DNA of 64,000 nt from a virus. A program made the translations under genes and the position numbers. The DNA lies in IMG/VR virus record IMGVR_UViG_3300021373_002437, positions 1 through 64,000 of that record, one strand, 5' to 3'. Position 1 is the first letter of the stretch, and every line of letters starts with the position of its first letter. This document shows positions 2,463 through 57,862 of this stretch, piece by piece. A model generated the notes under the pieces. That model did not search any database, was not told where the DNA came from, and saw nothing but the letters and a program-made list of their open reading frames with translations.

Positions 2463-3299
2463 ATGGAATTTTTTATTGAATATGAAACATATGAAGGGAA
2501 TTCAGATTCCTTGTGTTATTCTTTGTTTGAAAATGAGGTTGTTGATGCGTGGTTGGAATGTATCCAAATCGGTAGACCAGAATTGAATTTTGGTTTTTAT
2601 GGATTGTCTAGACTTGACATAGCAGAAGTATCTTTAAAATTGGCTGCTGCCTATGAGAAAATATCTGAAAAATTATTAGAAAAAGATCAAAACATCGATG
2701 TAAGTAAAATACTAATTGATGGTGCTGTCGATCAACACTTGTTAAATAGACTTCATGCAATTTTTCATCATTACAAAGATAGGGATTTGCAATATGGTTT
2801 AACCGGTAACACTTATCAAGAAATTCTACAACAATTGAATGGTTTGGTTCATTTACTAGAATCACAACCACACAAGAACTCCTACCAGTTTATAATTAAC
2901 CCGGTTAGAAACTATCGTGGAGTGGAAATTCCTGATCATTGGTATAAAAAATACTTTTCAGGGCCCGAACAACACGGAGATTTGGTTTTGGGGTACGGTA
3001 CTGTCGGCAAGGAATTGTTGGAAATATATAAAACAAAAGATGTAAAAAATTTAAATCTTATTAGCCCACAAAAATATGTGTATGGGGAATTTAGACAAAT
3101 TTTTAATGGAGAGATTAATTACATAAGTACAGAACAGCTTAGACTGTGGTGTGCAGAGAGTGGAAAATCTTCATTACATGAAAGAGAACTCTATACCTTT
3201 AGACCAAAGTTAGGAAAAATAAAAACAGATTTGAGCTTTAAACAATTGAGGCAAAAGTGCTTGACGTTTAAAAAAGTATTAGGAGTTGAGGTAGACTGA
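2463..3299 (+). CDS. Unrecognised family, paralogue A (radical SAM cassette)
   Basis: A 278-residue, apparently soluble protein that I do not recognise. It shares a sparse pattern with the products at 4576-5430 and 8303-9361. The shared pieces are a helix with LNRLHAIFHHY (near residue 94), a helix with LNGLVHLLE (near 125), a strand like NPVRNYRG, a LGYGTVGKELLEIY segment (near 177), and a later YGEFRQIF segment. Paired His residues on two predicted helices suggest a helical metal or cofactor site, but this is inference. It starts immediately after the stop of the B12-type radical SAM gene. Its repeated occurrence next to radical SAM genes suggests it is a partner or substrate carrier; no function is claimed. 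Confidence 0.75.
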   Translation: MEFFIEYETYEGNSDSLCYSLFENEVVDAWLECIQIGRPELNFGFYGLSRLDIAEVSLKLAAAYEKISEKLLEKDQNIDVSKILIDGAVDQHLLNRLHAIFHHYKDRDLQYGLTGNTYQEILQQLNGLVHLLESQPHKNSYQFIINPVRNYRGVEIPDHWYKKYFSGPEQHGDLVLGYGTVGKELLEIYKTKDVKNLNLISPQKYVYGEFRQIFNGEINYISTEQLRLWCAESGKSSLHERELYTFRPKLGKIKTDLSFKQLRQKCLTFKKVLGVEVD

Positions 3300-3332
3300 T
3301 GTAAGTGACTATGGTGTGTCATTGGTGATGTT

Positions 3333-4571
3333 ATGAAAATAGGTTTTATTGGAATCGGAAAACTTGGATTGTCTTGTGCTGAAAAGATTGCGGAATGTGG
3401 GTATTCCGTAGAGGGTTATGATATAACCCAAAAAAATACCAAAAATGTAAGTCAGGTTAGTACCATTGAGGAAGTAGTAGCAGACAAAGAAATCGTATTT
3501 GTGGCTGTCCCGACACCACATGACTCGAATTATGATGGTCGAAACCCCACATCACATCTGCCGCCCAAAGATTTTTATTATGATGTTGTTAAATCTGTTT
3601 TGGCTGAAGCAAACGACCATATGAATGAGAATCAAGTTCTTGTTTTGATCAGCACTGTTATTCCGGGCACCATAAGAAGTGAGATTATCCCTTTAATTAC
3701 TAATACTCAGTTTACATATAATCCTTATCTTATCGCCATGGGTAGTGTGTCTTGGGATATGGTAAACCCAGAAATGGTGATAATTGGAACTGAGACTGGT
3801 TCTAATGATGATGCTGCAAAGAAACTGGTAAATTTTTATAAGACCATAATGCAAAATGACCCAAGGTATGTACTGGGGACATGGGATGAAGCGGAAGCAA
3901 TCAAAATTTTTTACAACACATTCATCAGTACCAAGATTTCTCTTGTTAACATGATACAGGATGTAGCAGAAATTCAGGGAAATATTGATGTTGATGTGGT
4001 CACAGAAGCATTAGCACAAAGCGATATGCGTATCATGGGACCACAATATATGAAAGCTGGTATGGGTGATGGTGGTGGCTGTCACCCCAGAGATAATATT
4101 GCCCTAAGACACATGGCCCAGAAATTAGGTCTTGGGTATGACTTGTTTGCTAGTATAATGGGTGCCAGAGAGATGCAGGCAAAAAATCTTGCAAAATTAT
4201 TGGTTGAGCTTGCAGATACCCACAATAAGAATATATATATTCATGGAAAGTCCTACAAACCTGATGTAGATTTTTTGGATGGAAGTTACAGCATCCTTGT
4301 TGCATATTATTGTGAAGAGATTGGGTTTGATGTGACATACGTAGACCCCTTGACTGGGGATGATAATCAACCTGAAGAGCCATGTGTAATTCTTTTAGCC
4401 CACAGCCCAGCTACAACTTACAGATATACAACTAAGGAAACCGAAAAGGCAGATCAACTGTATTGCAAAATTCCTGATGGTAGTATAGTGGTTGACCCGT
4501 GGAGAAAATATGTTAATGAAAACTGCAAGGTAATACATTACGGCAACACCAGATATAACAGGGGGGGTTGA
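3333..4571 (+). CDS. UDP-glucose/GDP-mannose 6-dehydrogenase-like protein
   Basis: A 412-residue NAD-dependent dehydrogenase of the UDP-glucose dehydrogenase superfamily. Members oxidise a nucleotide sugar twice to a uronic acid. The N-terminal Rossmann motif is G7-x-G9-x-x-G12 (GFIGIGKLG), and VFVAVPTP near 55-62 is the typical strand of the family. The central helix has K191 and N195 (AIKIFYNTF) and the catalytic cysteine is C250 in MGDGGGCHPRDN. The C-terminal domain opens with HGKSYKPDVDFLDGS, close to the usual GxxYKPxxxDxRxS. It is slightly shorter than bacterial enzymes (about 430-450). It may supply an activated sugar acid for the glycosyltransferase-like genes of this genome; the exact sugar is unknown. 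Confidence 0.85.
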   Translation: MKIGFIGIGKLGLSCAEKIAECGYSVEGYDITQKNTKNVSQVSTIEEVVADKEIVFVAVPTPHDSNYDGRNPTSHLPPKDFYYDVVKSVLAEANDHMNENQVLVLISTVIPGTIRSEIIPLITNTQFTYNPYLIAMGSVSWDMVNPEMVIIGTETGSNDDAAKKLVNFYKTIMQNDPRYVLGTWDEAEAIKIFYNTFISTKISLVNMIQDVAEIQGNIDVDVVTEALAQSDMRIMGPQYMKAGMGDGGGCHPRDNIALRHMAQKLGLGYDLFASIMGAREMQAKNLAKLLVELADTHNKNIYIHGKSYKPDVDFLDGSYSILVAYYCEEIGFDVTYVDPLTGDDNQPEEPCVILLAHSPATTYRYTTKETEKADQLYCKIPDGSIVVDPWRKYVNENCKVIHYGNTRYNRGG

Positions 4572-4575
4572 GATT

Positions 4576-5430
4576 TTGTATATTAATGTATCTATATGTG
4601 ATGATGAAAAAGAACATACTTTTAGAATCGACCTGTTGTCTAACAAATATGTTGATCATTTATTTGAAAAACATGAAATATCTGGTAACTGGTCTTGGCA
4701 GAGAGTTGCTGTTCCGTCTGAATTGGATTATGATGCGGATAGAATAAAAGAATTGTGGGATGGGTGCCTTTCTTGTTACTATAAATTTTTAGACTTGATA
4801 GGAGCAAAAGATTTGGCAGCCCCCCCAGAAACTTTTGATTTTACCAATAAACATACGAATACTTTCCATCGAATTTTTACAACATACAACATTTCCTGTA
4901 CATACTATGGGGTTGAGTATGAATTTAAACAAGAAGCGTTGGATGAAGTGGAAGAACTTAATGTTCTTATTCATGAACTTGAAAAATATATTCCAAATAA
5001 AACAATCGATGATTTCAAGAAAGATTTTGGAAAGGTGGCGTGGATAGATATTCAGGGAGACAATCACGAGAAAGAAACTAGATTCAATTTTTATGAATCC
5101 GACAGAGAGTTTGTAAATAATTTTTCTGAGTATTGTAATGTTTTTTGCATCAAACATATATTGGGGAAAGACCATTTGATCGGTTATTTAAATGAAGATG
5201 AAAGTCATCATTGGGATATAACAAATTTTCATTTGGGTTATTGTGGGTTTTGTTTGGATTTCCGGGGCGATTTACAACGGGTGTGGAAATACCCACCGTT
5301 GAAAGATTGGGCTGGAGAGGTTTCTTTATCATATTATCCGGTGGGTAGAATATCCGAAGAAGATATGGATGTAATTAGAGGACTTTCTAGTAATGTGAAA
5401 GTTGTAGGGGTTGAATATATAAATGGCTGA
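4576..5430 (+). CDS. Unrecognised family, paralogue B (radical SAM cassette)
   Basis: A 284-residue protein, probably started at the TTG at 4576, four bases after the dehydrogenase stop; no ATG fits better. It is related by pattern to the products at 2463-3299 and 8303-9361: TNTFHRIFTTY (near 93) corresponds to LNRLHAIFHHY and LNQLHHHFEIL, and ELNVLIHELE (near 126) corresponds to LNGLVHLLE and LNNLVHELQ. The N-terminus is more divergent and the C-terminal part has YCGFCLDFRGDLQ in place of the YGEF/SGEF segment. The end overlaps the first twitch radical SAM gene by 8 bases. Function is unknown. Confidence 0.72.
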   Translation: MYINVSICDDEKEHTFRIDLLSNKYVDHLFEKHEISGNWSWQRVAVPSELDYDADRIKELWDGCLSCYYKFLDLIGAKDLAAPPETFDFTNKHTNTFHRIFTTYNISCTYYGVEYEFKQEALDEVEELNVLIHELEKYIPNKTIDDFKKDFGKVAWIDIQGDNHEKETRFNFYESDREFVNNFSEYCNVFCIKHILGKDHLIGYLNEDESHHWDITNFHLGYCGFCLDFRGDLQRVWKYPPLKDWAGEVSLSYYPVGRISEEDMDVIRGLSSNVKVVGVEYING

Positions 5431-6883
5431 ACAATTCACGGACAATACGAAAAATGAAGATCGTATTAAGATTTTAGAGATAAAACGTGATCAAATCAAT
5501 GAGGTAAGTCCTTCTTTTTGTACTGCCAAATGGTTACAAACGACTCTTTATTTACAGACTGGATTTAATCATTCTTGTCACCACCCATCACCACACAAAA
5601 TACCAGTGAAAGAAGTTCTAGAAAATCCTGCTGCACTTCATAACAGCAAATTTAAAAAAGAACAGCGTGAAAAGATGTTGGCGGGAGAACGACCAAAAGA
5701 ATGTGATTATTGCTGGAATATAGAAGATTTAGATAATAAGTATTTCTCTGATAGGCATTATAAAACGTCCGACTATTGGGCTTGGGATAGGTTCGACGAG
5801 ATAACAAATTCAAATCCAGAAGATGATATTTTTCCTTCTTATCTGGAAGTTTCCTTCTCAAATGCTTGTAACTTTGCATGTTCTTATTGTTCCCCAGATA
5901 TAAGTTCGAAGTGGATGAAGGACATTAAAAGTAATGGCCCATATCCCGTCAAGTTTGGTAGCCACCACCTTTCTTATTTGCGAGAGAGAGAACAGTTCCC
6001 ATACTCACACGATGAATATAATCCATACGTCGAAGCCTTTGACAAATGGTTCCCAGAAGCGTATCCCCATCTAAAAGTTTTTCGTATTACTGGTGGTGAA
6101 CCAACCATGTCAAAAGATTTCTGGAAAACCTTGGATTTTATACTTGAGAATCCAAGACCCGATCTTGAGATTTCAATTAATACTAATCTGGGCACACCAA
6201 AAGAATTGATTGATCGTTTAATTGTTTATGCTAAGAAATTAGATGAGACTTGTAAGGAATGTTTAATATTTACTAGCTGCGAAGCCTACAAAGAGCAAGC
6301 AGAGTATATTAGAGACGGTATGAATTATGACTATTGGTATTCTAATATTGTAAGGTTCCTAGAAGAGACCGATTGTAAAGTTTGTACTATGACAACGATT
6401 AATGTGTTGAGCTTACCATCATTTTCTAGGTGGCTTGATGATATGATGCAGCTACGAATTAAATATGATAAAGACAAATATGCACACCGAACCCCGATAA
6501 GTTTTAATTATTTGAGGTTCCCACCACACTTACAGGTGACCATTCTACCAAGAAAATATAGAGAGCGGTTTGCTAGGGAATTATCGGCTACAGCATTACA
6601 GTGGCATAAGAGAAATACTAGAATTGCCCATGCGAAGATATATCTAGAAGAACAAGATCAGATTGCTAGGTTCTGTGAATATTTGTTGAAAGATACTACT
6701 TCTGGTCCAAAGTACCGGGAAAATTTTATGCAGTTCATACAGCATTATGATTATAGAAGAAATAAAAACTTTACTGAAACTTTCCCGCAATATAAAAAGC
6801 TTTATGGAGAATGGCAAGAAGAATATGCAGAATCTCTATCAGCCGATAAGAGAAATCTTGAGTTAGGTAACCACGTTGAGTGA
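5423..6883 (+). CDS. Twitch-type radical SAM protein (SCHHP subgroup, 1)
   Basis: A 486-residue radical SAM protein with inverted domain order. An N-terminal twitch-like auxiliary cluster domain carries C33 (PSFCTAKW), C52 (SCHHP, 51-55), and C94/C97 (ERPKECDYCW). The core follows with C149, C153 and C156 (NACNFACSYC) and RITGGEPTMS near 220. The end carries YDYRRNKNFTETFPQY, a signature shared by its neighbours. It forms a subgroup with 6876-8306 and 9363-10760, all having HKIP after SCHHP. The chemistry is presumably SAM cleavage to a 5'-deoxyadenosyl radical; the substrate is unknown. It overlaps the neighbours on both sides, indicating translational coupling. Confidence 0.88.
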   Translation: MAEQFTDNTKNEDRIKILEIKRDQINEVSPSFCTAKWLQTTLYLQTGFNHSCHHPSPHKIPVKEVLENPAALHNSKFKKEQREKMLAGERPKECDYCWNIEDLDNKYFSDRHYKTSDYWAWDRFDEITNSNPEDDIFPSYLEVSFSNACNFACSYCSPDISSKWMKDIKSNGPYPVKFGSHHLSYLREREQFPYSHDEYNPYVEAFDKWFPEAYPHLKVFRITGGEPTMSKDFWKTLDFILENPRPDLEISINTNLGTPKELIDRLIVYAKKLDETCKECLIFTSCEAYKEQAEYIRDGMNYDYWYSNIVRFLEETDCKVCTMTTINVLSLPSFSRWLDDMMQLRIKYDKDKYAHRTPISFNYLRFPPHLQVTILPRKYRERFARELSATALQWHKRNTRIAHAKIYLEEQDQIARFCEYLLKDTTSGPKYRENFMQFIQHYDYRRNKNFTETFPQYKKLYGEWQEEYAESLSADKRNLELGNHVE

Positions 6884-8306
6884 TCATTTAATAGAATATA
6901 GAAAACGAGTCCTTGATGCGAAGTCCCCGTCTTTCTGTGGTGCGAAATGGTATAATGCTACTACTTGGTTAGGTAGTGGAACTACTGCATCGTGCCACCA
7001 CCCGACTGCTCATAAAATACCTCTTGTGGAGCTAGAGGCTGATCATACTGCAATACACAACACGAAGCATAAGAAAGCAGTTAGAAAGATGATGCAAGAA
7101 GGCGAAAGGCCAAAGGAGTGTGAATATTGTTGGCGCATTGAGGATATGGGTAAGGATTCTGTTTCGGATAGAGTTTTCAAATCAGAAATCTACAGCGAAG
7201 AAGACCTTCAGAAAGCTTATGAAATGGATTGGAAAGATAGTGTTGATTTAAAGACTTTTGAAATTGCTTTTGATCGAACATGTAACCTAGCATGTTCTTA
7301 TTGCAACCCCTCCTTTTCTTCTACGTGGGCTAGGGACATTAAAAAACTGGGTCCATACCAGAATCTTTTATCTGATGGAGCGGGTGCGTTTGAACAAGAT
7401 GGTTCTTGGACTGAGCCTTATGGTAGAGACGAAGAGAACCCGTATATCACAGCATTTTGGAAGTGGTGGGATGATGGGTTGTCAGATAGTCTAGAAGAAT
7501 TACGTATTACTGGTGGTGAACCCCTAATGTCTGGTAACACTTGGAAGTTATTTGATTGGTTTGAACAACAAGATTCTGACATGAGGTTTGCAATCAATAC
7601 AAATTTCATGGCAAAGGACGAAATTGTTGATCGTTTGATTGAAAAATCTCACCACATAAAACATTTTGAGCTTTATACTAGTGCTGAGTGTTATGGCACC
7701 CAGCAAGAATTTTTACGTGATGGGTTTGAATGGGATACATGGTCGAAAAATATGGACCGATTTGCAGAAGAGGGTAATTATCATAGCATAAATATCATGA
7801 TGACGATCACTGCTTTGAGTGTGTTTTCTATTACAGAATTCTTAGACGAAGTTACAGATATGAAGCAGAGAAGTCGTGCTGGCAAACATCCTGTAATAAG
7901 CGTCAATATTTTGAGGTTCCCTAGCTTCCAAAGCGTTGTGACATTACCAGAACATATAAGAGCATTTTGTAGAAACGAGTTGTTTCTTTGGATTGAAGAG
8001 AATAAAAATTTGCCCTGTTGGTTAGATTTTGAAATCGCCAGCCTGCAAAGACTGGTCGATTATCTGTATTCATACGACTCTCCATTTGAGAAGGCTAGTG
8101 AGTTGGAGGTTCGACAACAAGACTTAAAATCTTTCTTTGATCAATACTGTGATCGTAGAGGTAAGGACATAAACGTATTTCCAACAATTTTTACCGAATG
8201 GTATAATTCTTTGGAAAGTGGGTATAAGAAAGCAGCTTTGAAGTCTGGAGATAATACTAGATTTTTGGATGATAATAGATTAATAGAACTGAGGGACATA
8301 TTATGA
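6876..8306 (+). CDS. Twitch-type radical SAM protein (SCHHP subgroup, 2)
   Basis: A 476-residue paralogue of the preceding protein. The start is the TTG at 6876, overlapping the previous stop by 8 bases; the next in-frame ATG would delete the N-terminal cluster ligands. Twitch ligands are C21 (PSFCGAKW), C40 (SCHHP), C82 and C85 (ERPKECEYCW). Radical SAM ligands are C136, C140 and C143 (RTCNLACSYC), followed by RITGGEPLMS. The C-terminal CDRRGKDINVFPTIF matches the DxRR...FP signature of the group. The region NILRFPSFQSVVTLPEH corresponds to NYLRFPPHLQVTILPRK in the first copy. Divergence between copies is large, so this is an old duplication and probably specialised in substrate. Confidence 0.88.
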   Translation: MSDHLIEYRKRVLDAKSPSFCGAKWYNATTWLGSGTTASCHHPTAHKIPLVELEADHTAIHNTKHKKAVRKMMQEGERPKECEYCWRIEDMGKDSVSDRVFKSEIYSEEDLQKAYEMDWKDSVDLKTFEIAFDRTCNLACSYCNPSFSSTWARDIKKLGPYQNLLSDGAGAFEQDGSWTEPYGRDEENPYITAFWKWWDDGLSDSLEELRITGGEPLMSGNTWKLFDWFEQQDSDMRFAINTNFMAKDEIVDRLIEKSHHIKHFELYTSAECYGTQQEFLRDGFEWDTWSKNMDRFAEEGNYHSINIMMTITALSVFSITEFLDEVTDMKQRSRAGKHPVISVNILRFPSFQSVVTLPEHIRAFCRNELFLWIEENKNLPCWLDFEIASLQRLVDYLYSYDSPFEKASELEVRQQDLKSFFDQYCDRRGKDINVFPTIFTEWYNSLESGYKKAALKSGDNTRFLDDNRLIELRDIL

Positions 8307-9361
8307 CAAAGACTGTTGTAATGACTTTACAAAATCCTCTTGATGAGAGTGATTTGTTGGAGATTGAATATGAAGTATTGGACACCACTATAGGTAACCA
8401 ATGGTTTGATCATTGCATCATGAATCTGAACAAACGACAAAGAGTTGAGAAAAATTTTTGTTGGTTGGGTTGGCCTGATCAAAACAGGACAGTTGAGTTT
8501 CTTGCAGAGCGACTAGAGCGTTGCGTTGATACTATAAATGAATTTGCGGATACTAATAATCCACATTGGAATGGATACCGTATAGAAAAGAGTTGGGAAG
8601 ATATTACCAGTGATGATGCCTTAAATCAACTTCATCACCATTTTGAAATTTTGATGGGACAGGTTTGGGATGTTGCAATCTATATGCGTTCTGCTGACCC
8701 AAAAACCTCCTATGCTATTCGGCAATTGAATAATTTAGTTCACGAACTACAAGCTAGGAAATATGCCAACAAATCTGGTATGACTGTTGTGAGTTATTTG
8801 GACCCGATTAGAGAAGAGTTTGACGAACAGCATTATGACAGCTTTTCTATAAACAGAAATTTTGGTGATATCTTCTTACATTACGCACAAACTGGAAAAA
8901 CACCAATAGAAGCATTTGAGGACAATGATGATTATGTGTTTAATAATAACATAAATGCATTGCGATACATGTCTGGTGAATTTAATATTTGGTGGAATGC
9001 TTCAACCTCTGAATCTGATGTAAATTCAACTAAAGAGAAACTTGGAGCATGGTTAAACGCCAGAGAAGTTATCATGCAAGAGCAAGATGATTTTTGTTAT
9101 TATGTTGACCCTGATGGTAATAAACAGGGTATCGGGTGGCTGACAGTAGCAAAGATAAAAAACCCTTTCGAAACAGAAGACGAATTGGTTGAAGAGGTTA
9201 ATAAGCGTCTTAATATATATAAGCTTGCCTGTTATATTGATGGTGAATTTGTTACTGAAATGCAGTGGGATTATAAGTGGTCTGATGAAGACTATATTGA
9301 AAATGAAGTAGAGTATTTGACTCCACTATTTCCATGCTCACAACCTAACGCTTTGGATTGA
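8303..9361 (+). CDS. Unrecognised family, paralogue C (radical SAM cassette)
   Basis: A 352-residue protein, the longest of three related copies. Its start overlaps the preceding radical SAM stop by ATGA. The shared pattern is clearest against 2463-3299: LNQLHHHFEILMG (near 114), LNNLVHELQ (near 146), VVSYLDPIR (near 162), DIFLHYAQTGKTPIEAFED (near 188), and YMSGEFNIWW (near 220). Its C-terminal ~110 residues, absent from the shortest copy, are acidic and contain YYVDPDGNKQGIGW. The His/Glu pairs on adjacent predicted helices could bind metal, but this is speculative. It sits between two SCHHP-subgroup radical SAM genes, strengthening the link between the two families. Confidence 0.75.
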   Translation: MTKTVVMTLQNPLDESDLLEIEYEVLDTTIGNQWFDHCIMNLNKRQRVEKNFCWLGWPDQNRTVEFLAERLERCVDTINEFADTNNPHWNGYRIEKSWEDITSDDALNQLHHHFEILMGQVWDVAIYMRSADPKTSYAIRQLNNLVHELQARKYANKSGMTVVSYLDPIREEFDEQHYDSFSINRNFGDIFLHYAQTGKTPIEAFEDNDDYVFNNNINALRYMSGEFNIWWNASTSESDVNSTKEKLGAWLNAREVIMQEQDDFCYYVDPDGNKQGIGWLTVAKIKNPFETEDELVEEVNKRLNIYKLACYIDGEFVTEMQWDYKWSDEDYIENEVEYLTPLFPCSQPNALD

Positions 9362-9362
9362 A

Positions 9363-10760
9363 ATGCCACATACATACGATTTAATAAAGGTTAAAGATAT
9401 AACGGAACAATTGAATGAAGTTGGTCCCGGTTTTTGTATGGCTAAGTGGTACCACATTAGCATGCATCTACATACGGGACAAAATCACAGTTGTTACCAC
9501 CCAGCCCCACATAAAATTCCATTGAAAGAAGCACAGGAGAACCCTAATGTACTCCACAATACCCCATATAAGAAACAGGTTCGAAAAGAAATGTTGTCTG
9601 GTGGTAGACCCTCAGAATGTTCTTATTGTTGGGATGTAGAAGACTTGCCCGGAGACCATATTTCTGATAGAATGTTAAGGTCTTCTGAAGAATGGTCTAT
9701 ACCTAAAATTGAAGAAACTTCAAAGATGACCGGGGATGAAGATGTTTATCCTGCATATCTAGAACTGAATTTTAGTAATCGCTGCCAATTTAAGTGTAGT
9801 TACTGCGCTCCTATGGCTAGTTCTACTTGGGTTAATGAAACGGATAAGTATGGTGATTGGCCTTTGGAAAACCCGATCAATGTTAGGCAGTACCAAAACA
9901 TATCATTCCAAAATGAGGGGACTAAACATGGAGAAGAAGATTCGAACCCATATATTAAAGTCTTTTGGGATTGGTTTCCAGAAGCATATCCTCATGTACA
10001 GACACTTAGATTCACTGGTGGCGAGCCTTTATTAAGCCCCAATGTTTTCAAGGTTCTTGATTATGTTTCAGAACACCCAAACCCAGAACTTAAATTTGCT
10101 GTAAACAGTAACATGTCAGTTCCTCAGAGAAACATAGAGCGGTTCATTAATGTCACTAATGATTTGGTGCAAAATAATAAAATCAAGGGGTATGGGGTAT
10201 TCACCAGTGTAGATACGTGGGGGGCACAAGCTGAATGGATACGTAATGGATTGAACATAGAGAAATACGAAAACAATCTTCATTACTACATGCAAAACTC
10301 CGCAACCCCATATATGAGTTTTATGGTCACGTTCTGTTTGCTGGCAATTCCTAGGTTCACGGAATTTTTGGATAAAGTATTGGAATTGAGGAAGCAGTAT
10401 AACGTTTGTAATGATCAGCGCCAAAGAATAAACTTTGATACTCCATACACAGTAGAACCACCACATTTAACCGCTAGAATTGCAGATGATTGGTTTGTGG
10501 AAAGATTAGATCACAACTGTCAATACATTTTAGACAGGGTTGATGACAATGATGTGAATGCGTTTTCCATGGTAGAATATGAAAAGCTTCATCGGGTTTT
10601 GGAGTGGGTGAAGAGAAGTAGATTTGAGGGCGATGAATTGGCAATGAACCGTAGAGACTTTGCTAAATTTGTCGATGAACATGACAGGAGACGGGGCACA
10701 GACTTTCATGCTGCATTCCCTGAACTTAGAGAATTTTATGAGATGTGTAGAAAATCATGA
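9363..10760 (+). CDS. Twitch-type radical SAM protein (SCHHP subgroup, 3)
   Basis: A 465-residue third member of the subgroup, one base after the preceding stop. The N-terminal auxiliary domain has C25 (GPGFCMAKW), C44 (SCYHP, one His replaced by Tyr), C86 and C89 (GRPSECSYCW). Core ligands are C141, C145 and C148 (NRCQFKCSYC), then LRFTGGEPLLS. The C-terminal signature is DEHDRRRGTDFHAAFPEL. In the second core region the protein reads NFDTPYTVEPPHLTARI, less like the LRFP strand of copies 1 and 2, so the substrate pocket may differ. Its end overlaps the next start as ATGA. Confidence 0.88.
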   Translation: MPHTYDLIKVKDITEQLNEVGPGFCMAKWYHISMHLHTGQNHSCYHPAPHKIPLKEAQENPNVLHNTPYKKQVRKEMLSGGRPSECSYCWDVEDLPGDHISDRMLRSSEEWSIPKIEETSKMTGDEDVYPAYLELNFSNRCQFKCSYCAPMASSTWVNETDKYGDWPLENPINVRQYQNISFQNEGTKHGEEDSNPYIKVFWDWFPEAYPHVQTLRFTGGEPLLSPNVFKVLDYVSEHPNPELKFAVNSNMSVPQRNIERFINVTNDLVQNNKIKGYGVFTSVDTWGAQAEWIRNGLNIEKYENNLHYYMQNSATPYMSFMVTFCLLAIPRFTEFLDKVLELRKQYNVCNDQRQRINFDTPYTVEPPHLTARIADDWFVERLDHNCQYILDRVDDNDVNAFSMVEYEKLHRVLEWVKRSRFEGDELAMNRRDFAKFVDEHDRRRGTDFHAAFPELREFYEMCRKS

Positions 10761-12064
10761 AAGATGAAAAAAATGAAATTATGTGCAAAACATTCACCGA
10801 TGATGTTCAGGAGTCATTTTGTGTACTTCCCTTTGTCCACACAAACCTGAACACTGAGGGAGATGTTTACCCCTGTTGTATTTCTTGGGACGCAGAGCGT
10901 TCAAATAAAATTGGTCTTTTAAAAGATAATACTTTAGAAGAATTATTCAACGATGATAAGCTACAACAACTTCGTCGCGACTTGATATCAGGAACGCGCC
11001 GCCCCGATGTTTGTGTTCGCTGTTACACTTCTGAAGACAATGGTTTTCCTGCTGGTAGACATGGCAACAATCGTGATCTGCAGCACATGATTCCTCAAAT
11101 ATTAGAGGACTATTCTGAAACCGGATATATGCCACCGAAAATAAAAAGCTGGGATATTCGTTATAGTAATTTATGTAATTTGAAATGTAGAAGTTGTGGT
11201 GGAATATACAGCACTACATGGTCAAAAGAAGATTCTGAGTTTTATCATGGGATGGAATACCGCGAGATAAAATCATATGAAGGAAAAGACCCTCTTGAGA
11301 ACCAATATGAACACGTAGAAAAAATATATTTTGCTGGTGGTGAGCCACTTATAATGCCAGAACATTTTTCAACCCTGAAGAAGTTGATTGAAATCGATAG
11401 AGCCAAGTACGTTAGATTAGTTTATAATACTAACATGACAAAACTCAATTATGATAGGAACTACTTACCAGATTTGTGGAAAGAATTTAAAGCAGTTTCA
11501 TTGGGGTTGAGTATAGATAATTTTGGGGATAGAGCAAACTACATACGTCATGGAAATATAAAATGGAACAAAATAGAAGATAATATTAAGAAAATGTATG
11601 AATATACAACGACTCCCGGTTCTAATATGGATTACTTTTTTTCACCAACTGTGAGTTTATTGAATGTGTATACTTTAACAGATTTGCATCGCTATTTATT
11701 TGAAAATGGTATGATGGTCCACCCAGACCAAATACTTCTCAACATTTTGTATCACCCACAGGAACTTTCTATCACCATACTCCCTGACCACATAAAGGAA
11801 GAAATATCTGGCAAAATTATTGCACATATAGCGTGGTTGAATTCCTTGGACGGTACTTATGGCAATGCCAAAGGGCAATTTGAAAGTCTATTGTCCTATA
11901 TACATGAGACAATACCGAATGTGGAAGAACATGTTGAACGTTTTGTGAAAAGAACCCAAGAGATTGACCACAGAAGAAATGAATGCTTCCCAGATACCTT
12001 TCCAGAATATGCAGAATGGTGGCAAACTATTACTAAGGACAAAATTTTCGCGGTAAACATATGA
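10757..12064 (+). CDS. Twitch-type radical SAM protein (PCC subgroup, 1)
   Basis: A 435-residue radical SAM protein with the canonical version of the N-terminal twitch domain: SFCVLPF (C22), VYPCCISW (C40/C41), a TLEELFNDDKLQQLRRDL helix and PDVCVRCYTSED (C86, C89). Radical SAM ligands are C140, C144 and C147 (NLCNLKCRSC), followed by YFAGGEPLIM. The C-terminus has EIDHRRNECFPDTFPEY. This Cys-Cys plus Cys-x-x-Cys arrangement is what SPASM/twitch domains use to hold an auxiliary [4Fe-4S] cluster. It differs from the SCHHP group in having a doublet of cysteines. It is coupled by ATGA overlaps on both sides. Confidence 0.9.
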   Translation: MKDEKNEIMCKTFTDDVQESFCVLPFVHTNLNTEGDVYPCCISWDAERSNKIGLLKDNTLEELFNDDKLQQLRRDLISGTRRPDVCVRCYTSEDNGFPAGRHGNNRDLQHMIPQILEDYSETGYMPPKIKSWDIRYSNLCNLKCRSCGGIYSTTWSKEDSEFYHGMEYREIKSYEGKDPLENQYEHVEKIYFAGGEPLIMPEHFSTLKKLIEIDRAKYVRLVYNTNMTKLNYDRNYLPDLWKEFKAVSLGLSIDNFGDRANYIRHGNIKWNKIEDNIKKMYEYTTTPGSNMDYFFSPTVSLLNVYTLTDLHRYLFENGMMVHPDQILLNILYHPQELSITILPDHIKEEISGKIIAHIAWLNSLDGTYGNAKGQFESLLSYIHETIPNVEEHVERFVKRTQEIDHRRNECFPDTFPEYAEWWQTITKDKIFAVNI

Positions 12065-13329
12065 AAGAACTGCCCAAAACTATATGTGCTCACCCGTGGC
12101 AACATTTACATAGTTGGCCTGATGGGAAGGCTATGTTGTGCTGTGTTGCCCATGGGGGAGATAAACACGGTGCTGTTGGTGATTTTTCGGTTAATTCATA
12201 CGAAGAAATTATGAACAGTGATAAAATGAATCAAATCCGAAAAGATTTCTTGAATGGTGAGAAACCCGTTGAGTGTAGTGCTTGTTGGAAAGCTGAAGAG
12301 TTGGGTAAAAGCAGTTTTAGGTTAGATATTGGTCTCAGCGATGAAGTAAGAGATTTGATGGAAAGAACCTCCGATAATGGAGAGCTTCCAGAAACAAAGA
12401 TGTATTACATGGATTACCGATTCAGCAATCTGTGTAACCTTGGTTGTCAAACTTGTGGTAGTCCACTTAGCAGCACAATAGCAAATAAGAGGGAGAATAA
12501 CGAGAGTGAAAATTCTATACTGAGAGACCGAGGGGTTTTATCTGAGAGGGGTACTGTTACATCATTTGTTTATGCCAGACCAGATTTCATGGAAGTTGAT
12601 GTTTATCCATATTTGGATGATTGTCGGAGTTTTTATTTTGCTGGTGGTGAACCGTTAATGCACCAAGAACATCTGGATATACTTAACTACCTAAACGACA
12701 ATAAATTATACAATAAGCACATAATGTATAGTACAAACCTGTCAATTTTATCATGGAAGGGTAACGACTTTATTGATATTTGGAAAAACTTTAGCAACTT
12801 GATGTTTTGGTGTAGTGTAGATGCACATGGCCCCGCATTAGAATATGTTAGGGAATATTCCAACCACGACACGATCTTTAAAAATTTGCAAAAGTTGTTA
12901 GATGCAAAAAAAGATCATCCCCAAATGAAGATAAATATTTGCTGTACCCACAGTGTATATAATGCATATTGTTTTCCAGAATTTATAGACTTTTTGTATG
13001 AGCAGGGATTTCTACAACTGCTGGATGATATTGAAATAAACTATGCTTTTGGAGATTTGAATTCTCCAGCAATACTTCCTAACTTCGCAAAAAAGGAACT
13101 AAAAGAGAAGAGGGCCCTTTGTAGGAACAATGAATCAATTCAATATGCAATGCAAAAATTTGATAAGTTTGAATATTACTATGACACAGTAGATTCTGTT
13201 ATAGACGAACCCAGTCAAAAAAGAGTCTGGGATGATCTGGTCTCAAAAAAATTGATAAAAGATATGAAAAAGCTTGAAAACAGCCTGCCTTGGTTGCACA
13301 GTGTTGTTGAGAGGTATAGAATTGTATGA
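12061..13329 (+). CDS. Twitch-type radical SAM protein (PCC subgroup, 2)
   Basis: A 422-residue protein. Twitch ligands are C9 (TICAHPW), C27/C28 (AMLCCVA), C72 and C75 (VECSACWKAEE). Core ligands are C125, C129 and C132 (NLCNLGCQTC) followed by SSTIANKR, then FYFAGGEPLM. Unlike the others the C-terminus lacks an obvious DxRR...FPE signature and ends SLPWLHSVVERY. Start and stop overlap neighbours by 4 bases (ATGA). The substrate is unknown; the operon context implies it acts on the same product as its five relatives. Confidence 0.88.
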   Translation: MKELPKTICAHPWQHLHSWPDGKAMLCCVAHGGDKHGAVGDFSVNSYEEIMNSDKMNQIRKDFLNGEKPVECSACWKAEELGKSSFRLDIGLSDEVRDLMERTSDNGELPETKMYYMDYRFSNLCNLGCQTCGSPLSSTIANKRENNESENSILRDRGVLSERGTVTSFVYARPDFMEVDVYPYLDDCRSFYFAGGEPLMHQEHLDILNYLNDNKLYNKHIMYSTNLSILSWKGNDFIDIWKNFSNLMFWCSVDAHGPALEYVREYSNHDTIFKNLQKLLDAKKDHPQMKINICCTHSVYNAYCFPEFIDFLYEQGFLQLLDDIEINYAFGDLNSPAILPNFAKKELKEKRALCRNNESIQYAMQKFDKFEYYYDTVDSVIDEPSQKRVWDDLVSKKLIKDMKKLENSLPWLHSVVERYRIV

Positions 13330-14531
13330 CACATTGCATTAACGTATATAAAGGACTTAGATATACCAATAGTGGGGATGTTCAGTTTTGTTGTAAGAGT
13401 GATATGTTTCTAGATGATAAGGATGGGAACAAGGCACAAATTTATACTCACACCCTAGAAGAAGCCCAAAATGGAAATCTTGCTGTCGAAATTAGAGAAG
13501 ATTTGGAGCGGGGGGTAAAACATAAGAATTGCCAGAAATGTTGGGATGAAGAAGAAGCTGGCATTTCTAGTAAAAGAATTTTGGACAACCAAAGAGCTAT
13601 TCGATATTGGGGAGAAAGGTATTTAAATGATAAAGTGGTATCCCCAGAAATAGTTGAGTTTAATTTTGGAACTATTTGCAACCTCAAATGTAGAATATGT
13701 GGTCCGTGGTCGAGCAGTAGATGGAATTCTGAATTTTATGAGTTGCTTGCCGGGGAGGATTATCCAAAAGAACATCACGACAACCAAGTTTCTTTGTGGC
13801 AAGGTAATTGGGAAGATGATAGTCCTGCGTGGGACAATATTTCTAAAAGCATCGGCAACCTAAGACACATTGATTTCTATGGTGGCGAGCCTTTTTTGGT
13901 AGACCGCAATTGGGAAATATTGAAGCAGAATGTTGAAAATGGTAATTCCTCAAACCAATATATCCATTTCAATACGAATGGAACTCGTTATGAGGAAGAG
14001 CATATAGAAATTTTAAAGAGTTATCGTAGAATAAATATAAGTTTATCTATTGACGATATGGGGGAGCGATTTAATTATCAGAGGCATCCGGCTAACTGGG
14101 ATATAGTAAATGAAAACTTAAAGAAATTTAAAGAGCTTGAAGAAGAATTCCCCCAGTTTGAAGTTATGGTCTGTGTGACTGTTAATAATTTAAATTTGTG
14201 GTATATACCGGAATTGGTGAATTATTTTGATAGTATGGGAATACCCTATTATATAAACTATTTACACTACCCCTCCCACTATAACATATCAAATTTAAAA
14301 CAAGATGTTAAGCCTTTGGTGGCGCAAAAATATGATGAAGCCATGATGGAGATGCAATGTAATTATAGTAAAGATAATTTGAAAGCAATAATAAATTATA
14401 TGAATGTTAATATAGGCACCGCTGAACGGTGGAATGAATTTTTAAATAAAACTGAATTCAGTGATAAATATAGAAAACAAAATTTTAAAAGTGTTTTTCC
14501 TGAGTGGGCCGATGTGTTGGGGATTGTGTAA
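13326..14531 (+). CDS. Twitch-type radical SAM protein (PCC subgroup, 3)
   Basis: A 401-residue protein. Twitch ligands are C4, C22/C23 (VQFCCKSD), C69 and C72 (KNCQKCWDEEEAG). Core ligands are C118, C122 and C125 (TICNLKCRIC) followed by GPWSSSRWN, a run typical of this family, and then DFYGGEPFLV. The C-terminus has KQNFKSVFPEWADVLG, a degenerate form of the FPE signature. It is the last of the radical SAM series. The stop is followed directly by the TTG start of the SDR gene, continuing the operon. Confidence 0.88.
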   Translation: MTHCINVYKGLRYTNSGDVQFCCKSDMFLDDKDGNKAQIYTHTLEEAQNGNLAVEIREDLERGVKHKNCQKCWDEEEAGISSKRILDNQRAIRYWGERYLNDKVVSPEIVEFNFGTICNLKCRICGPWSSSRWNSEFYELLAGEDYPKEHHDNQVSLWQGNWEDDSPAWDNISKSIGNLRHIDFYGGEPFLVDRNWEILKQNVENGNSSNQYIHFNTNGTRYEEEHIEILKSYRRINISLSIDDMGERFNYQRHPANWDIVNENLKKFKELEEEFPQFEVMVCVTVNNLNLWYIPELVNYFDSMGIPYYINYLHYPSHYNISNLKQDVKPLVAQKYDEAMMEMQCNYSKDNLKAIINYMNVNIGTAERWNEFLNKTEFSDKYRKQNFKSVFPEWADVLGIV

Positions 14532-15203
14532 TTGAATATAGTTATAGTTGGTGCTGGGAATGACCCGCAAAGATTTGGGGGATATTTCAAACAAGTTGCA
14601 GAAGAAGCGGAACATACTGTTTATACGTTTTCTTATAGACTTGAAACTACCGCTCTTGAGGACGTTCCAGTTATTTTTGAGTTGGATGTTTTAGATCGTA
14701 TACCAGAGGGAGAAACAATAGACTTGTTTCTATACAATTCCATTGGTGGGTTTTATCCGGGTCAACCAAAACATTATTCTTCATTGCACGATGTTAATAT
14801 GTACGAGTGGCAGAAATCTATTCTCATAAACGCAGCAATTCCACACAAACTTTCTACAATGGCTTTAAGAAAAATGGATGAAAACAGTTCTATTGTGTTT
14901 ATGACTTCTTCTGCCTCTTATTTGATAAACAGAGACAATTATTTGGAAATGGCTGGTTACTTTGGCACTAAAGGTGCTATGAATCAACTTATGCGAGCCA
15001 TGGCAGAATATAATGATAAGGGGACTACAGTATATACCATGGCACCGCACATACCATACGAAAATCCAGAACAGGCACGACTCATATTGAAAAAATTGAC
15101 CGATTACATTTTATCTATGAATAAAGAAAGTAATGGAAAAATACTACAGTGTTATCCACCAGATGGTAGAATCTGGCCCCACGAGGGAGGACAACATCCA
15201 TGA
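14532..15203 (+). CDS. Short-chain dehydrogenase/reductase-like protein
   Basis: A 223-residue protein with the SDR fold signature: an N-terminal NAD(P) strand IVIVGAG with G7-x-G9, a VFMTSSAS strand carrying the catalytic Ser, and YFGTKGAMNQL, which is the YxxxK active-site motif. It is at the short end of the family. The start is TTG directly after the previous TAA. It is followed with ATGA overlap by a 42-codon peptide. It could reduce or oxidise a sugar or a radical SAM product; the substrate cannot be inferred. Confidence 0.8.
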   Translation: MNIVIVGAGNDPQRFGGYFKQVAEEAEHTVYTFSYRLETTALEDVPVIFELDVLDRIPEGETIDLFLYNSIGGFYPGQPKHYSSLHDVNMYEWQKSILINAAIPHKLSTMALRKMDENSSIVFMTSSASYLINRDNYLEMAGYFGTKGAMNQLMRAMAEYNDKGTTVYTMAPHIPYENPEQARLILKKLTDYILSMNKESNGKILQCYPPDGRIWPHEGGQHP

Positions 15204-22682: not shown

Positions 22683-22746
22683 AAGAATTCGATGACGCAG
22701 ATCGAAGAACGGACGGACGCGGGTTCAACTCCCGCCGCCTCCACCA
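22683..22746 (+). ncRNA. ssrA: tmRNA acceptor piece
   Basis: Ends in a T arm of five pairs with loop TTCAACT, acceptor strand CGCCTCC and encoded ACCA, nearly identical to the 3' end known from bacterial tmRNAs (GGACGCGGGTTCAACTCCCG). Upstream, TTCGAT (22688-22693) and ATCGAA (22701-22706) form a small hairpin. The 5' boundary is uncertain because the long stem of the preceding element ends at 22681 and may be removed during processing. Confidence 0.85.
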
Positions 22747-22870
22747 AAAGCACACTACATATGGGCGACTGTTAGCTGGACTACATATTGGGTAGTAGAG
22801 TTACCGAGGAAAGAAACCTATTTCTTTAAGCTTGCTTGTTAATGGACAGTGCAAGTAGTGTGTTTTTGAT
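22747..22870 (+). other. tmRNA intervening segment removed on maturation
   Basis: The 124 bases between the encoded ACCA and the G-run of the coding piece. Its ends are complementary: 22746-22758 pairs with 22855-22867 over 13 positions with one G-U, stacking close to the acceptor helix. That presents the pre-tmRNA as one long hairpin suited for excision by RNase P and 3' processing enzymes. No coding frame is evident. Confidence 0.75.
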
Positions 22871-23066
22871 GGGGGCGATACGGATTCGACGGACGGTGAT
22901 AGAGAAGCTGAGAATAGGTCAATGTGAAAGACCTTAAGGACTGGGAGTTCCCGGTTAAAGAAGCAAAAACTATAAACGCAAACGATGACGTTTATCATCA
23001 AGATATTTTGCTAGCTGCTTAAGTCTTGACGGGGTGCGGTGGGAGCCTTGTTAACCAATTCCCACA
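22871..23066 (+). ncRNA. ssrA: tmRNA coding piece
   Basis: Begins GGGGGCGATACGGATTCGAC, the conserved tmRNA 5' end with seven bases for the acceptor helix. Hairpins AGGTC/GACCT (22916-22934) and CTGGGA/TCCCGG (22941-22954) lie where pseudoknot 1 is expected. The tag frame follows, then GTGGGA/TCCCAC (23039-23044 with 23060-23065) near the 3' end. The exact 3' end is not defined by the sequence alone. Confidence 0.82.
22978..23022 (+). other. tmRNA proteolysis-tag reading frame
   Basis: Codons from GCA at 22978 give the tag ANDDVYHQDILLAA, then TAA. The first residues AND and last AA match the usual tmRNA tag pattern recognised by ClpXP-type proteases, while the middle DVYHQDIL and the LLAA end are unlike the common ALAA ending. 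An in-frame GCA also occurs at 22963; the 22978 codon is preferred because the conserved A/T-rich motif lies immediately before it. The appended peptide in the cell would be preceded by the alanine carried by tmRNA itself. Confidence 0.82.
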
Positions 23067-54306: not shown

Positions 54307-54954
54307 AATCACCATAAACCTATCAAATTCATTTAACCCGTCGAAAGTCCAGTACTTCTGTTTAATAGAACCTTCATAGTATGGGTTACTGATACCAGTA
54401 TTTTTCTTGTGCTCTTCAATACTATCTACGCAATTGATACCGTACATTTCTTTGATCACGTTTGAGTTTTGAATGGCGAAAACACAATCTGGATTGGCTG
54501 TGGTTAAATCTTTCAGTGGGTACATTGTTTCCGCACACATTGAAATTACAATATCAGTTTCCAATGCATTGATATCATGAAAGGCGAACGGTACGTCCCA
54601 ATTTAGGTGAGATAAATCAGTTCCTTCATCAACGTAGTTCTTATTAAAAATTTTAGATAGTTCTAACGCATCTTTATCAACGTCGATAAGATTGATTTTA
54701 GCAACATCAAAATTTTCACACAGCATGGGAACTAGTGGAAAACCAAGCCAAGAATTTAAGATGGTTATATTTAGACCCACATTCTTTTTGGTTGGCATGT
54801 TTGACAAAGTTTCACACAGCCAAATGGTAGCCTCCATGGAATTGGGGTTCAAAGATTTTCTGAAATCCTCATGTTTATGTGGCATTTCATGATGTATTTT
54901 GTCTAGAGCATTACCCCAGTGGGCAAAGTTGTTTAAAAAATCAAAGCTTAACAT
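54292..54954 (-). CDS. Class I methyltransferase-like protein
   Basis: 220 residues from the ATG at 54954 (SD GGAGAG); an ATG at 54978 would add eight residues inside the upstream gene. NITILNSWLGFPLVPML followed by INLIDVDKDALELSKIFNK looks like strands 1 and 2 of a SAM-binding Rossmann fold with the acidic D at the end of strand 2. FHDINALETDIVISMCAETM fits strand 4. The Gly-rich loop is degenerate (NSWLGFP). Last gene of a five-gene minus-strand operon; the target is unknown. Confidence 0.6.
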   Translation of the reverse strand: MLSFDFLNNFAHWGNALDKIHHEMPHKHEDFRKSLNPNSMEATIWLCETLSNMPTKKNVGLNITILNSWLGFPLVPMLCENFDVAKINLIDVDKDALELSKIFNKNYVDEGTDLSHLNWDVPFAFHDINALETDIVISMCAETMYPLKDLTTANPDCVFAIQNSNVIKEMYGINCVDSIEEHKKNTGISNPYYEGSIKQKYWTFDGLNEFDRFMVIGTKS

Positions 54955-55630
54955 CTTCAGGTCTCTCCATAGAGTCATATAATCTTACAAGTGGGTCTTC
55001 CCGTATTACTCTCTCTTCAATATCTGAGGGCCAGACAAAGCCATTGTTGAAGCTATATACCCAGCCAGACGGGAAGAAATCAAAATTGAGCAATCGTTCT
55101 CGTTGGTGACCAAACATATTGTCCAGCCCCCGGTAATAAAAAAACATTTGTGACGGATAAGACTTGACAAAGTGTGTGAGTTTGTCAGAATCAAATCGGT
55201 CATTCCATCTTAGGATAGAGGAATTGAACTCGGTGTATTTCCAAGGAGTGTCTTTCACATCCTCTTTCATTTTATTAAGGTTGTGCCACCAAGTCTTGAT
55301 AAAAACTAAATTGTTACCGGGTTCATAATCAACAATACAATCTATATTCTTCTGGATAAAAACATCAAGATCAAAGAATAACTTTTCACCTTTCTGTGTT
55401 ACCACGCTTCGATCAAATAGATGAAGTTTATTCCACCATTTCTCATAATAGCTATTTTCTGGTATCGGAATTACTTCAATTTCTGGCCTCAATCCAAAGG
55501 GCATTTCTGTCAAACAGAAGAACTTAAAATCCCCTGTTATGTGCTCTTCGCACATCCTATAGATTTCATTCACATGATCGTGGGAATATTTCTGCCCCCA
55601 CTTCACTGTATAGATATTAATCATCGCCAA
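54941..55630 (-). CDS. Glycosyltransferase-like paralogue 4 of the island
   Basis: A 229-residue GT-A-like protein with IYTVKWGQKYSHDHVNEIYRM, FFCLTEMPFGLRPEIEVI and the metal site KLFFDLDVFIQKNID. Related to the three genes upstream on this strand. LDNMFGHQ corresponds to TDNYHSW/YHYW in copies 2 and 3. It overlaps its neighbours by 10 and 14 bases. It probably adds a sugar to a virion or host surface acceptor; this is inferred from family only. Confidence 0.72.
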   Translation of the reverse strand: MAMINIYTVKWGQKYSHDHVNEIYRMCEEHITGDFKFFCLTEMPFGLRPEIEVIPIPENSYYEKWWNKLHLFDRSVVTQKGEKLFFDLDVFIQKNIDCIVDYEPGNNLVFIKTWWHNLNKMKEDVKDTPWKYTEFNSSILRWNDRFDSDKLTHFVKSYPSQMFFYYRGLDNMFGHQRERLLNFDFFPSGWVYSFNNGFVWPSDIEERVIREDPLVRLYDSMERPEDVKL

Positions 55631-56451
55631 TGCTCCAATAAATCTGGGTCAGCCAGATCATCTTGTTTGGTGCTACCCCTACTAGAATCTTCAAAAGGTA
55701 GTAAATCAATATTAAACACACATAGAATTGAGTCCGGTCTATATTTATCTACTTCCAAATCCCTCGCACCCCAATCTCTTCCCCGGTTGTAAGAATACGC
55801 CATGTGGCTGGGGAAGTGTCCCCAAAGTTTATTCTCACTAAAGTCTCCCCACCTCCAACTGTGGTAGTTGTCTGTACCATCTGTAAATGTGAACCAGATT
55901 CTTTCTTGATGTTCCAACACATCTTTCCAGATCACCTCGCACTGGTCATCGCTCCAGACCTGACAGCTTCCGTTGGTGTATGCACCATGCGCCAGCTTAA
56001 AATTGCGTGACTTCATGGGTCTCGGGTCTTGCCACCAACTTCTAAGCTTCGTCGGCCTATCCAGATCGTACATGATGATAGGCTCCATGTCGTTCTGAAT
56101 GATTACGTCAAGGTCGAGAAATACAAATCTGCCAGTAGGTTTATCATCAGCAAAATTATGAGTATTAAAGACAAAAGTTTTAGGCCGGTCCCAACAACGA
56201 GCCATACCGTACTTGAAGTTATCAGAGCCAAACCAATACTTAGGATGAATATCGGGAATATCAGGAAACTCAATGACTTTAATTTCAGGTTTAAGACCTT
56301 CAGGCAAATCGGTATAGCAATAAAAGTGAACATCAAATTTATCTGGATTGGTATTGCGGAGGGCCATGTTATAAAGCTTGTTAACAAAGTGTGGTCCATA
56401 CTTAGTTCCCCATTTACAACAGACGTAGTTGACTCGGATTAAGTCCCCCAT
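55621..56451 (-). CDS. Glycosyltransferase-like paralogue 3 of the island
   Basis: A 276-residue member, the longest. Signature segments: VNYVCCKWGTKYGPHFVNKLYNMA, YCYTDLPEGLKPEIKVIEFP, HPKYWFG, RFVFLDLDVIIQNDME (DLD at the active site) and FTDGTDNYHSWRWGDF. The ending YRPDSILCVFNIDLLPFE is shared with copy 2. Overlaps adjacent genes by ~10-13 bases. Confidence 0.75.
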   Translation of the reverse strand: MGDLIRVNYVCCKWGTKYGPHFVNKLYNMALRNTNPDKFDVHFYCYTDLPEGLKPEIKVIEFPDIPDIHPKYWFGSDNFKYGMARCWDRPKTFVFNTHNFADDKPTGRFVFLDLDVIIQNDMEPIIMYDLDRPTKLRSWWQDPRPMKSRNFKLAHGAYTNGSCQVWSDDQCEVIWKDVLEHQERIWFTFTDGTDNYHSWRWGDFSENKLWGHFPSHMAYSYNRGRDWGARDLEVDKYRPDSILCVFNIDLLPFEDSSRGSTKQDDLADPDLLEHWR

Positions 56452-57191
56452 AATGTTAACAACCTATCGTCTTCAAGTTGGTCAAGTTTGATTTGAGACT
56501 TTGCCCTTGGGTCTGGTGTCAGATCGGTGTTAAAAATACATACCTTAGCATCCGGTCTGTATGTAAATGGTTCTAGATCATTTGGATACGTCATGCCCCG
56601 ATTGTAACTATACACCCAATCGTATGGTATGTTTGCCCAGAAATCTCTTTGTCTCCAATAATGGTAGTTGTCGGTGCCTTTGAAAAAAGTTTTGAAAATC
56701 ATTTCCGAGTTTTCTAGTGCATCATGATATATGTGCTTTGTTTGTTCACCATACCATAACATCATACTTGAGTTATAAAATGTTCCTCGCATGTCAATGA
56801 AAAGTCTTTCATGTTTTTGTTTAGGGTTTTGCCACTGAACATGAATAAGTCTGGGTTTGATTGCGAGGGCGTCTAGCTCATCCAAATTGTTTTGTATGAT
56901 CACATCAAGATCAAAGTAGCACCATTTTCCTGTGTGTCCAGTCCACTCTTGGGAATTAAACACCAAAAATTTAGCCCGGTCCCAACAATACCCTTCTTCC
57001 CCAAACCAATATTTTGGGTGTAGTTCACCATCATCAGGGATTGGAAGTGTGTCACACTCAATACCTTCAGGGTCATCTGTAAAACAGGTGAATGTAAATT
57101 CTTTTGTGTAGTTCTTTCGGACCATGTTGAATAGGTTATTCACATAATCCGGGGTGTACTTATCTCCCCATTTGAGGCACACAAAATTCAT
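56439..57191 (-). CDS. Glycosyltransferase-like paralogue 2 of the island
   Basis: A 250-residue member very similar in layout to copy 3: FVCLKWGDKYTPDYVNNLFNMV, CFTDDPEGIECDTLPIP, HPKYWFGEEGYCWDRAKFLVF, CYFDLDVIIQNNLDEL, FKGTDNYHYWRQRDFW and YRPDAKVCIFNTDLTPD. The two must be a recent pair relative to copies 1 and 4. It overlaps the upstream gene by 32 bases. Confidence 0.75.
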   Translation of the reverse strand: MNFVCLKWGDKYTPDYVNNLFNMVRKNYTKEFTFTCFTDDPEGIECDTLPIPDDGELHPKYWFGEEGYCWDRAKFLVFNSQEWTGHTGKWCYFDLDVIIQNNLDELDALAIKPRLIHVQWQNPKQKHERLFIDMRGTFYNSSMMLWYGEQTKHIYHDALENSEMIFKTFFKGTDNYHYWRQRDFWANIPYDWVYSYNRGMTYPNDLEPFTYRPDAKVCIFNTDLTPDPRAKSQIKLDQLEDDRLLTLWGT

Positions 57192-57807: not shown

Positions 57808-57821
57808 TAGATTATTGATTG

Positions 57822-57829
57822 TATAAATA
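57822..57829 (+). promoter_or_regulatory. Late promoter for neck/terminase operon
   Basis: Exact TATAAATA, predicted start near 57835, leader of about 28 bases before the ATG at 57863. It lies in the divergent gap between the glycosyltransferase operon (-) and neck genes (+), next to a near-consensus box on the other strand. Confidence 0.75.
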
Positions 57830-57862
57830 ATGTAATACACCAATACTTATAAGACTTTTCAT

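What the first reader, a model, noticed from the sequence alone, without database searches (positions are those of the whole stretch)
2463..9361. Three paralogues of an unrecognised family interleaved with radical SAM genes
Products at 2463-3299, 4576-5430 and 8303-9361 share two helix motifs, (L/T)NxxHxxF(H/E/T) and (E/Q)LNxLxHxLE, and in two of them a Y(A/G)xTxGK strand-loop and a (Y/S)GEF segment. Each sits directly next to a radical SAM gene. Retained duplication suggests a partner, carrier or substrate role paired with individual enzymes. The paired His/Glu positions could form a metal site.
Basis: partly seen in the sequence, partly recalled or inferred. Interest (0 to 1): 0.78.

Follow-up and report, generated by a model that had tools for sequence, protein, structure and literature searches.

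The report
Unnamed phage family in radical-SAM islands
Three distantly related copies of a protein family that none of the reference libraries searched recognises sit among radical SAM enzyme genes in a marine T4-like phage; the family is common in uncultured marine phages and keeps an active-site-like set of invariant residues, but what it does is not known.

Summary
The genes at 2463-3299, 4576-5430 and 8303-9361 belong to one protein family: profile-profile E-values are 5e-14, 1.5e-8 and 4e-5, far above shuffled controls. The family matches nothing significant in Pfam, PHROGs, NCBIfam or PDB sequences. It has hundreds of relatives in uncultured marine phage contigs and none in the cultured phages searched. 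Its only two hits in bacterial or archaeal genomes are on contigs whose genes match the phage loci. Across 36 members less than 60% identical, two His, one Asn and one Gly are invariant, and an Asn and a Lys nearly so.

The three copies are ancient. Each groups with its own orthologue in other phages, and a second phage (275 kb) also carries all three among radical SAM genes.

The proposed one-to-one pairing with radical SAM enzymes fails. In that second phage the radical SAM order is kept but copies 1 and 2 have moved to other neighbours; only copy 3 keeps its neighbour. Adjacency to radical SAM genes is at the island's background level. Adjacency to GDSL/SGNH-type genes is enriched, though that test was post hoc.

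Best reading: soluble pathway enzymes or ligand-binding proteins of a surface-modification or small-molecule island.

The parts
2463..3299 (+). P1, family member, short form (278 aa); N95 H98 F101, N126 H130 E133, G182 K183, D193
   Evidence: orthologue L312:9001-9858, 49%
4576..5430 (+). P2, divergent family member, short form (284 aa, TTG start); N95 H98 F101, N129 H133 E136, G197 K198, D208
   Evidence: orthologues L086:2973-3812 (41%) and L312:11085-11945 (22%)
8303..9361 (+). P3, family member, long form (352 aa); N108 H111 F114, N143 H147 Q150, G198 K199, D209
   Evidence: orthologues in L003, L086-L090
570..2462 (+). B12-binding radical SAM protein, KedN5-like (below the curated cut-off), directly upstream of P1
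3333..4571 (+). UDP-glucose dehydrogenase family protein between P1 and P2
5423..6883 (+). N-terminal-twitch radical SAM protein 'a' (NF033640)
   Evidence: 319.8 bits against cut-off 170
6876..8306 (+). N-terminal-twitch radical SAM protein 'b' (NF033640)
   Evidence: 297 bits
9363..10760 (+). N-terminal-twitch radical SAM protein 'c' (NF033640); downstream neighbour of P3 in the loci tested
10757..12064 (+). N-terminal-twitch radical SAM protein 'd' (NF033640)
12061..13329 (+). N-terminal-twitch radical SAM protein 'e' (NF033640)
13326..14531 (+). N-terminal-twitch radical SAM protein 'f' (NF033640)
14532..15203 (+). short-chain dehydrogenase-like protein of the same island
   Evidence: conserved in L003, L086, L088
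15928..17361 (+). NodU/Nol-like carbamoyltransferase at the end of the island

Best explanation
The three genes encode old paralogues of a phage-restricted family of soluble proteins, most likely enzymes or ligand-binding proteins. The site is built from two neighbouring helices that carry N-x-x-H and L-N-x-x-x-H-x-x-E, plus a G-K loop and an Asp. They would work as separate steps in the pathway encoded by the island (B12 radical SAM, six twitch radical SAM proteins, UDP-glucose dehydrogenase, short-chain dehydrogenase, carbamoyltransferase), probably making or modifying a surface glycan or a small molecule in the infected cell, rather than as fixed partners of single radical SAM enzymes. Shown: homology, ancient paralogy, invariant residues, island membership, lack of fixed pairing. 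Inferred: that the invariant residues form one site, that it is catalytic or metal-binding, and what the pathway makes.
For: H, N, H and G are invariant and N and K nearly invariant in 36 members under 60% identity, and in 122 non-identical members, while the rest of the sequence drifts to 14-20% identity. The residue three after the second His is E, Q or H in all 36, compatible with a ligand role. The paralogues are separate supported groups shared with other phages. The 275-kb contig L312 carries all three among orthologous radical SAM genes and also has the B12 radical SAM (74%) and UDP-glucose dehydrogenase (67%), so the island travels as a set. The genes overlap or nearly touch, as in a co-translated operon. 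The published interpretation of glycosyltransferase-rich regions with radical SAM cassettes in pelagic T4-like phages is host-surface modification (PMC7029224).
Against: The island's product is unknown and the function of NF033640 proteins is unknown. The largest subfamily lies outside radical SAM islands, between a QueD/PTPS-like gene and a glycosyltransferase-like gene, so the shared pathway may be broader than this island. Invariant residues could also be a binding site without catalysis.
Confidence: 0.47

Rival explanations
1. They are partner or adaptor proteins (substrate-presenting or activating subunits), each bound to a particular radical SAM enzyme.
For: In the window all three touch a radical SAM gene. 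P3 keeps radical SAM 'c' downstream in all seven loci seen (identity checked for L086, L088, L089, L312; gene order for L003 and L087). 23 of 36 non-redundant members have at least two radical SAM genes within six genes, though many of these loci were fetched with radical SAM bait.
Against: P1 and P2 have different radical SAM neighbours in the orthologous island of L312. Adjacency is not above shuffled gene order (18 vs 16.7; 21 vs 24.0). Records with 5-21 N_Twi radical SAM genes and no member exist. Most loci of the long subfamily have no twitch radical SAM gene within several genes.
Confidence: 0.2
2. They work with the GDSL/SGNH-type proteins of these islands, for instance as the partner of an acyl-ester transferase or hydrolase acting on a glycan.
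For: An SGNH-like gene is the direct neighbour of 9 of 36 non-redundant members against 3.6 expected (p 0.002; earlier set 10 of 41 against 3.6). It lies directly beside P2's orthologue in L086 and P3's orthologue in L090/L312. It is also beside members outside dense radical SAM islands (L166, L321).
Against: No SGNH-like gene was found in the window, or among the genes of at least 80 aa called in the rest of this record. The link was noticed before it was tested, so the p-value is post hoc. SGNH assignment rests on motifs and one sub-threshold Pfam match. The long main subfamily has none nearby.
Confidence: 0.17
3. They are substrates or carrier proteins modified by the radical SAM enzymes.
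For: Several radical SAM enzymes and several paralogues in one operon; many known radical SAM/SPASM enzymes modify peptides (general knowledge).
Against: 280-350 aa with no leader/core layout and no repeated or hypervariable core. The invariant residues are spread over two helix-like stretches and a loop, not one modification site. Members also occur without twitch radical SAM genes nearby. No carrier motif matched in Pfam or NCBIfam.
Confidence: 0.1
4. They are virion or tail-fibre-region structural proteins.
For: The main subfamily lies a few genes upstream of a gp9/10-like structural gene.
Against: No PHROG structural match. Active-site-like conservation. In the window they sit among metabolic genes, well apart from the structural module.
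Confidence: 0.06

Closest known systems
Pelagimyophage host-recognition-cluster cassettes with radical SAM genes and glycosyltransferases (PMC7029224)
   Same: T4-like marine phage, variable region with radical SAM genes, UDP-glucose dehydrogenase and glycosyltransferases; same kind of island
   Different: That paper does not, in the passages read, single out this protein family; cultured HTVC008M has neither the family nor NF033640 proteins
T4-like environmental phage genomes with up to 12 radical SAM genes and an A-type Fe-S carrier (PMC5332604)
   Same: Marine T4-like genomes rich in radical SAM genes; the main subfamily of this family has an IscA/A-type carrier gene a few genes downstream
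   Different: The paper concerns Fe-S supply, not this family
NF033640 N_Twi_rSAM (twitch domain-containing radical SAM protein)
   Same: The neighbouring enzymes are clear members
   Different: The three proteins themselves are unrelated to it

Membership tests
NF033640 N_Twi_rSAM (neighbour genes a-f) | NCBIfam score above curated cut-off 170 bits | tested here: met
   six proteins at 286-355 bits
NF033640 N_Twi_rSAM (neighbour genes a-f) | Radical SAM CxxxCxxC cluster motif | tested here: met
   the three cysteines of the CxxxCxxC motif are invariant in the alignment of a, b, c and their orthologues
Any Pfam / PHROG / NCBIfam family (P1-P3) | Significant profile match | tested here: not met
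   single proteins, 74 members and consensus sequences; only scattered sub-threshold chance hits
Protein with a solved structure (by sequence) | Consistent profile match to PDB sequences | tested here: not met
   only inconsistent weak hits to helical proteins (FliG, IFT57), not reproduced between alignments
Common family of P1, P2, P3 | Full-length profile similarity above shuffled controls | tested here: met
Common family of P1, P2, P3 | NxxH ... LNxxxH ... GK signature | tested here: met
Dedicated radical SAM partner | Conserved pairing with one enzyme across phages | tested here: not met
   met for P3-c, not met for P1 and P2; not enriched overall
Metal-binding protein | Invariant ligand set in space | not testable with these tools

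The most novel reading that the evidence does not exclude
A new enzyme family with a new fold and an Asn/His/Lys site, widespread in uncultured ocean phages, that performs non-radical steps between radical SAM reactions in a phage-encoded pathway making an unknown glycan or small molecule on the infected cell.
Probability: 0.2. Interest if true: 0.85.

Novelty: new variant of a known kind. Interest (0 to 1): 0.58.

Why it matters
Radical SAM-rich islands are a conspicuous and unexplained part of marine T4-like phage genomes. A recurrent, unnamed family with a clear invariant signature gives a defined handle on what these islands make, and names residues to mutate. It is also common: a single pattern scan found 557 encoding stretches in viral contigs, against none in the cultured phages searched.

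Tried and rejected
PDB sequence-profile hits to FliG and IFT57 were rejected because they cover only helical parts and change with the alignment. The RRM_3 hit of P2 (4e-4, below Pfam's cut-off) was rejected because no other member shows it. HEPN-like and HNH-like readings of the N/H motifs were considered from general knowledge and dropped: no catalytic Arg before the N-x-x-x-H, wrong spacing, no profile match. A scan for P1-type relatives found only the 275-kb phage. Scans with the full alignment failed for lack of conserved stretches. Co-occurrence in records not chosen for either gene: 4 of 5 members' records against 5 of 14 others have over-threshold NF033640 genes (terminase-chosen G001-G014 plus five cultured or single-cell T4-like records), Fisher one-sided about 0.12 by hand, so only a trend. 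Cultured-phage searches with seven family members at E limits of 0.01-1 gave nothing credible.

Full report
WHAT IS THERE. The window is the first 64,000 bases of a 95,980-base virus record. It carries T4-like genes: PhoH, single-strand DNA-binding protein, baseplate wedge, tail-sheath stabiliser and terminase. The terminase is about 46% identical to cyanophage homologues. At its start lies an island in one direction: B12 radical SAM gene (570), P1 (2463), UDP-glucose dehydrogenase (3333), P2 (4576), radical SAM a and b (5423, 6876), P3 (8303), radical SAM c to f (9363-14531), a short-chain dehydrogenase and, further on, a NodU-type carbamoyltransferase. Genes a-f are all clear members of NF033640, the twitch radical SAM family (286-355 bits against a cut-off of 170). 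Gene junctions overlap or nearly touch.

ONE FAMILY. P1 and P3 match by BLASTP (E 9e-8), and P2 is linked to them through orthologues. Profile-profile comparison gives 5e-14 (P1 group vs long group), 1.5e-8 (P2 group vs long group) and 4e-5 (P1 vs P2 groups) over 198-265 columns. Sixty column shuffles for each pair never exceeded a score of 26.4, against 41-102 observed. No Pfam, PHROG or NCBIfam family and no PDB sequence matches credibly, whether single proteins, 74 members or consensus sequences are used.

DISTRIBUTION. One degenerate pattern scan of IMG/VR found 557 encoding stretches, mostly of the long subfamily and including near-identical contigs. In GTDB genomes only two contigs matched, and their genes match the phage loci. 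Nothing credible was found in 50,697 cultured-phage records, nor with the profile in the six phages checked by record: HTVC008M, P-SSM2, S-SCSM1, P-TIM40, AG-345-L05 and Vibrio phage K566. The family therefore appears restricted to phages, mostly uncultured marine ones.

CONSERVED RESIDUES. In 122 non-identical members the weighted frequencies are H111 1.00, N143 1.00, H147 1.00, G198 1.00, N108 0.96, K199 0.96 and F114 0.92 (P3 numbering). In 36 members under 60% identity, including the most divergent ones found in terminase-selected records, H/N/H/G remain 36 of 36, K 35 and N 34. The residue three after the second His is E 30, Q 3, H 3. In ten short forms an Asp (D193 of P1) is invariant too. 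This looks like an active or ligand site. Whether a metal is bound is unknown.

ANCIENT PARALOGUES. In a maximum-likelihood tree P1 groups with L312/L090's second copy (100/98), P2 with L086 and L090's third copy (97/96), and P3 with L089 and L090's first copy (100/100). The duplications therefore predate these phages. The 275-kb contig (L090/L312, record G029) carries all three among radical SAM genes, so the interleaved arrangement is recurrent.

NO FIXED PAIRING. In L312 the radical SAM orthologues c, d, e, f keep their order, and the B12 radical SAM (74%) and UDP-glucose dehydrogenase (67%) orthologues lie side by side without P1. P1's orthologue sits between d and e, P2's between e and f, and P3's in front of c. 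Only P3-c is stable. Over 36 non-redundant members, adjacency to radical SAM genes is 18 against 16.7 expected under shuffled local gene order, and adjacency to GDSL/SGNH-like genes is 9 against 3.6 (p 0.002). The second test was made after the pattern was noticed, and the SGNH assignment rests on motifs plus one sub-threshold Pfam match. Records with 5-21 NF033640 genes and no family member exist. The largest subfamily lies between a QueD/PTPS-like gene and a glycosyltransferase-like gene, with an A-type Fe-S carrier gene a few genes downstream. In the three records of over 100 kb that were checked for it, 9-12 NF033640 genes are present elsewhere in the record.

READING. The evidence fits members of a shared pathway better than dedicated partners or substrates of single radical SAM enzymes. 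The pathway's product is unknown. Surface glycan modification is the published reading of glycosyltransferase-rich regions of this type (PMC7029224) and is taken over here as inference.

LIMITS. Many loci were fetched using radical SAM or family bait, so context frequencies are not population estimates. In records not chosen for either gene the co-occurrence is only a trend. SGNH and glycosyltransferase labels of neighbour genes are partly motif-based.

Noticed in passing
window 22686-23022 (+): A permuted (two-piece) tmRNA gene, Rfam RF04321, 94.7 bits against a gathering score of 47; ARAGORN gives the tag ANDDVYHQDILLAA. From general knowledge this tmRNA form is typical of alphaproteobacteria, which would fit a SAR11-like host.
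   Followed up: partly
L023:4625-6724: A 699-aa reading frame joins a twitch radical SAM protein and a GDSL/SGNH-like protein directly in front of a family member; either a real fusion or a lost stop codon.
   Followed up: no
L086:3805-4599, L017:14402-15229, L014:13153-14037, L039:14819-15682, L093:9124-9687: Divergent GDSL/SGNH-like proteins recur beside family members and radical SAM genes in these islands; most of those scanned match no Pfam family.
   Followed up: partly
window 54941-57843 (-): Tandem genes of one glycosyltransferase-like cluster on the minus strand; the same cluster lies directly downstream of the family's long subfamily in other phages.
   Followed up: partly
L091:7077-8207 and many similar loci (L094-L231): The long subfamily is syntenic across a large group of uncultured phages: HIT protein, QueD/PTPS-like gene, family member, glycosyltransferase-like gene, sometimes a SPASM radical SAM gene, then an A-type Fe-S carrier gene.
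   Followed up: partly
L166 (NZDU01000042.1, labelled Pacearchaeota MAG) and L165 (NZHE01000018.1, labelled Rickettsiales MAG): Both contigs hold genes matching the phage loci, L165 throughout, and look like phage contigs binned into marine MAGs.
   Followed up: yes
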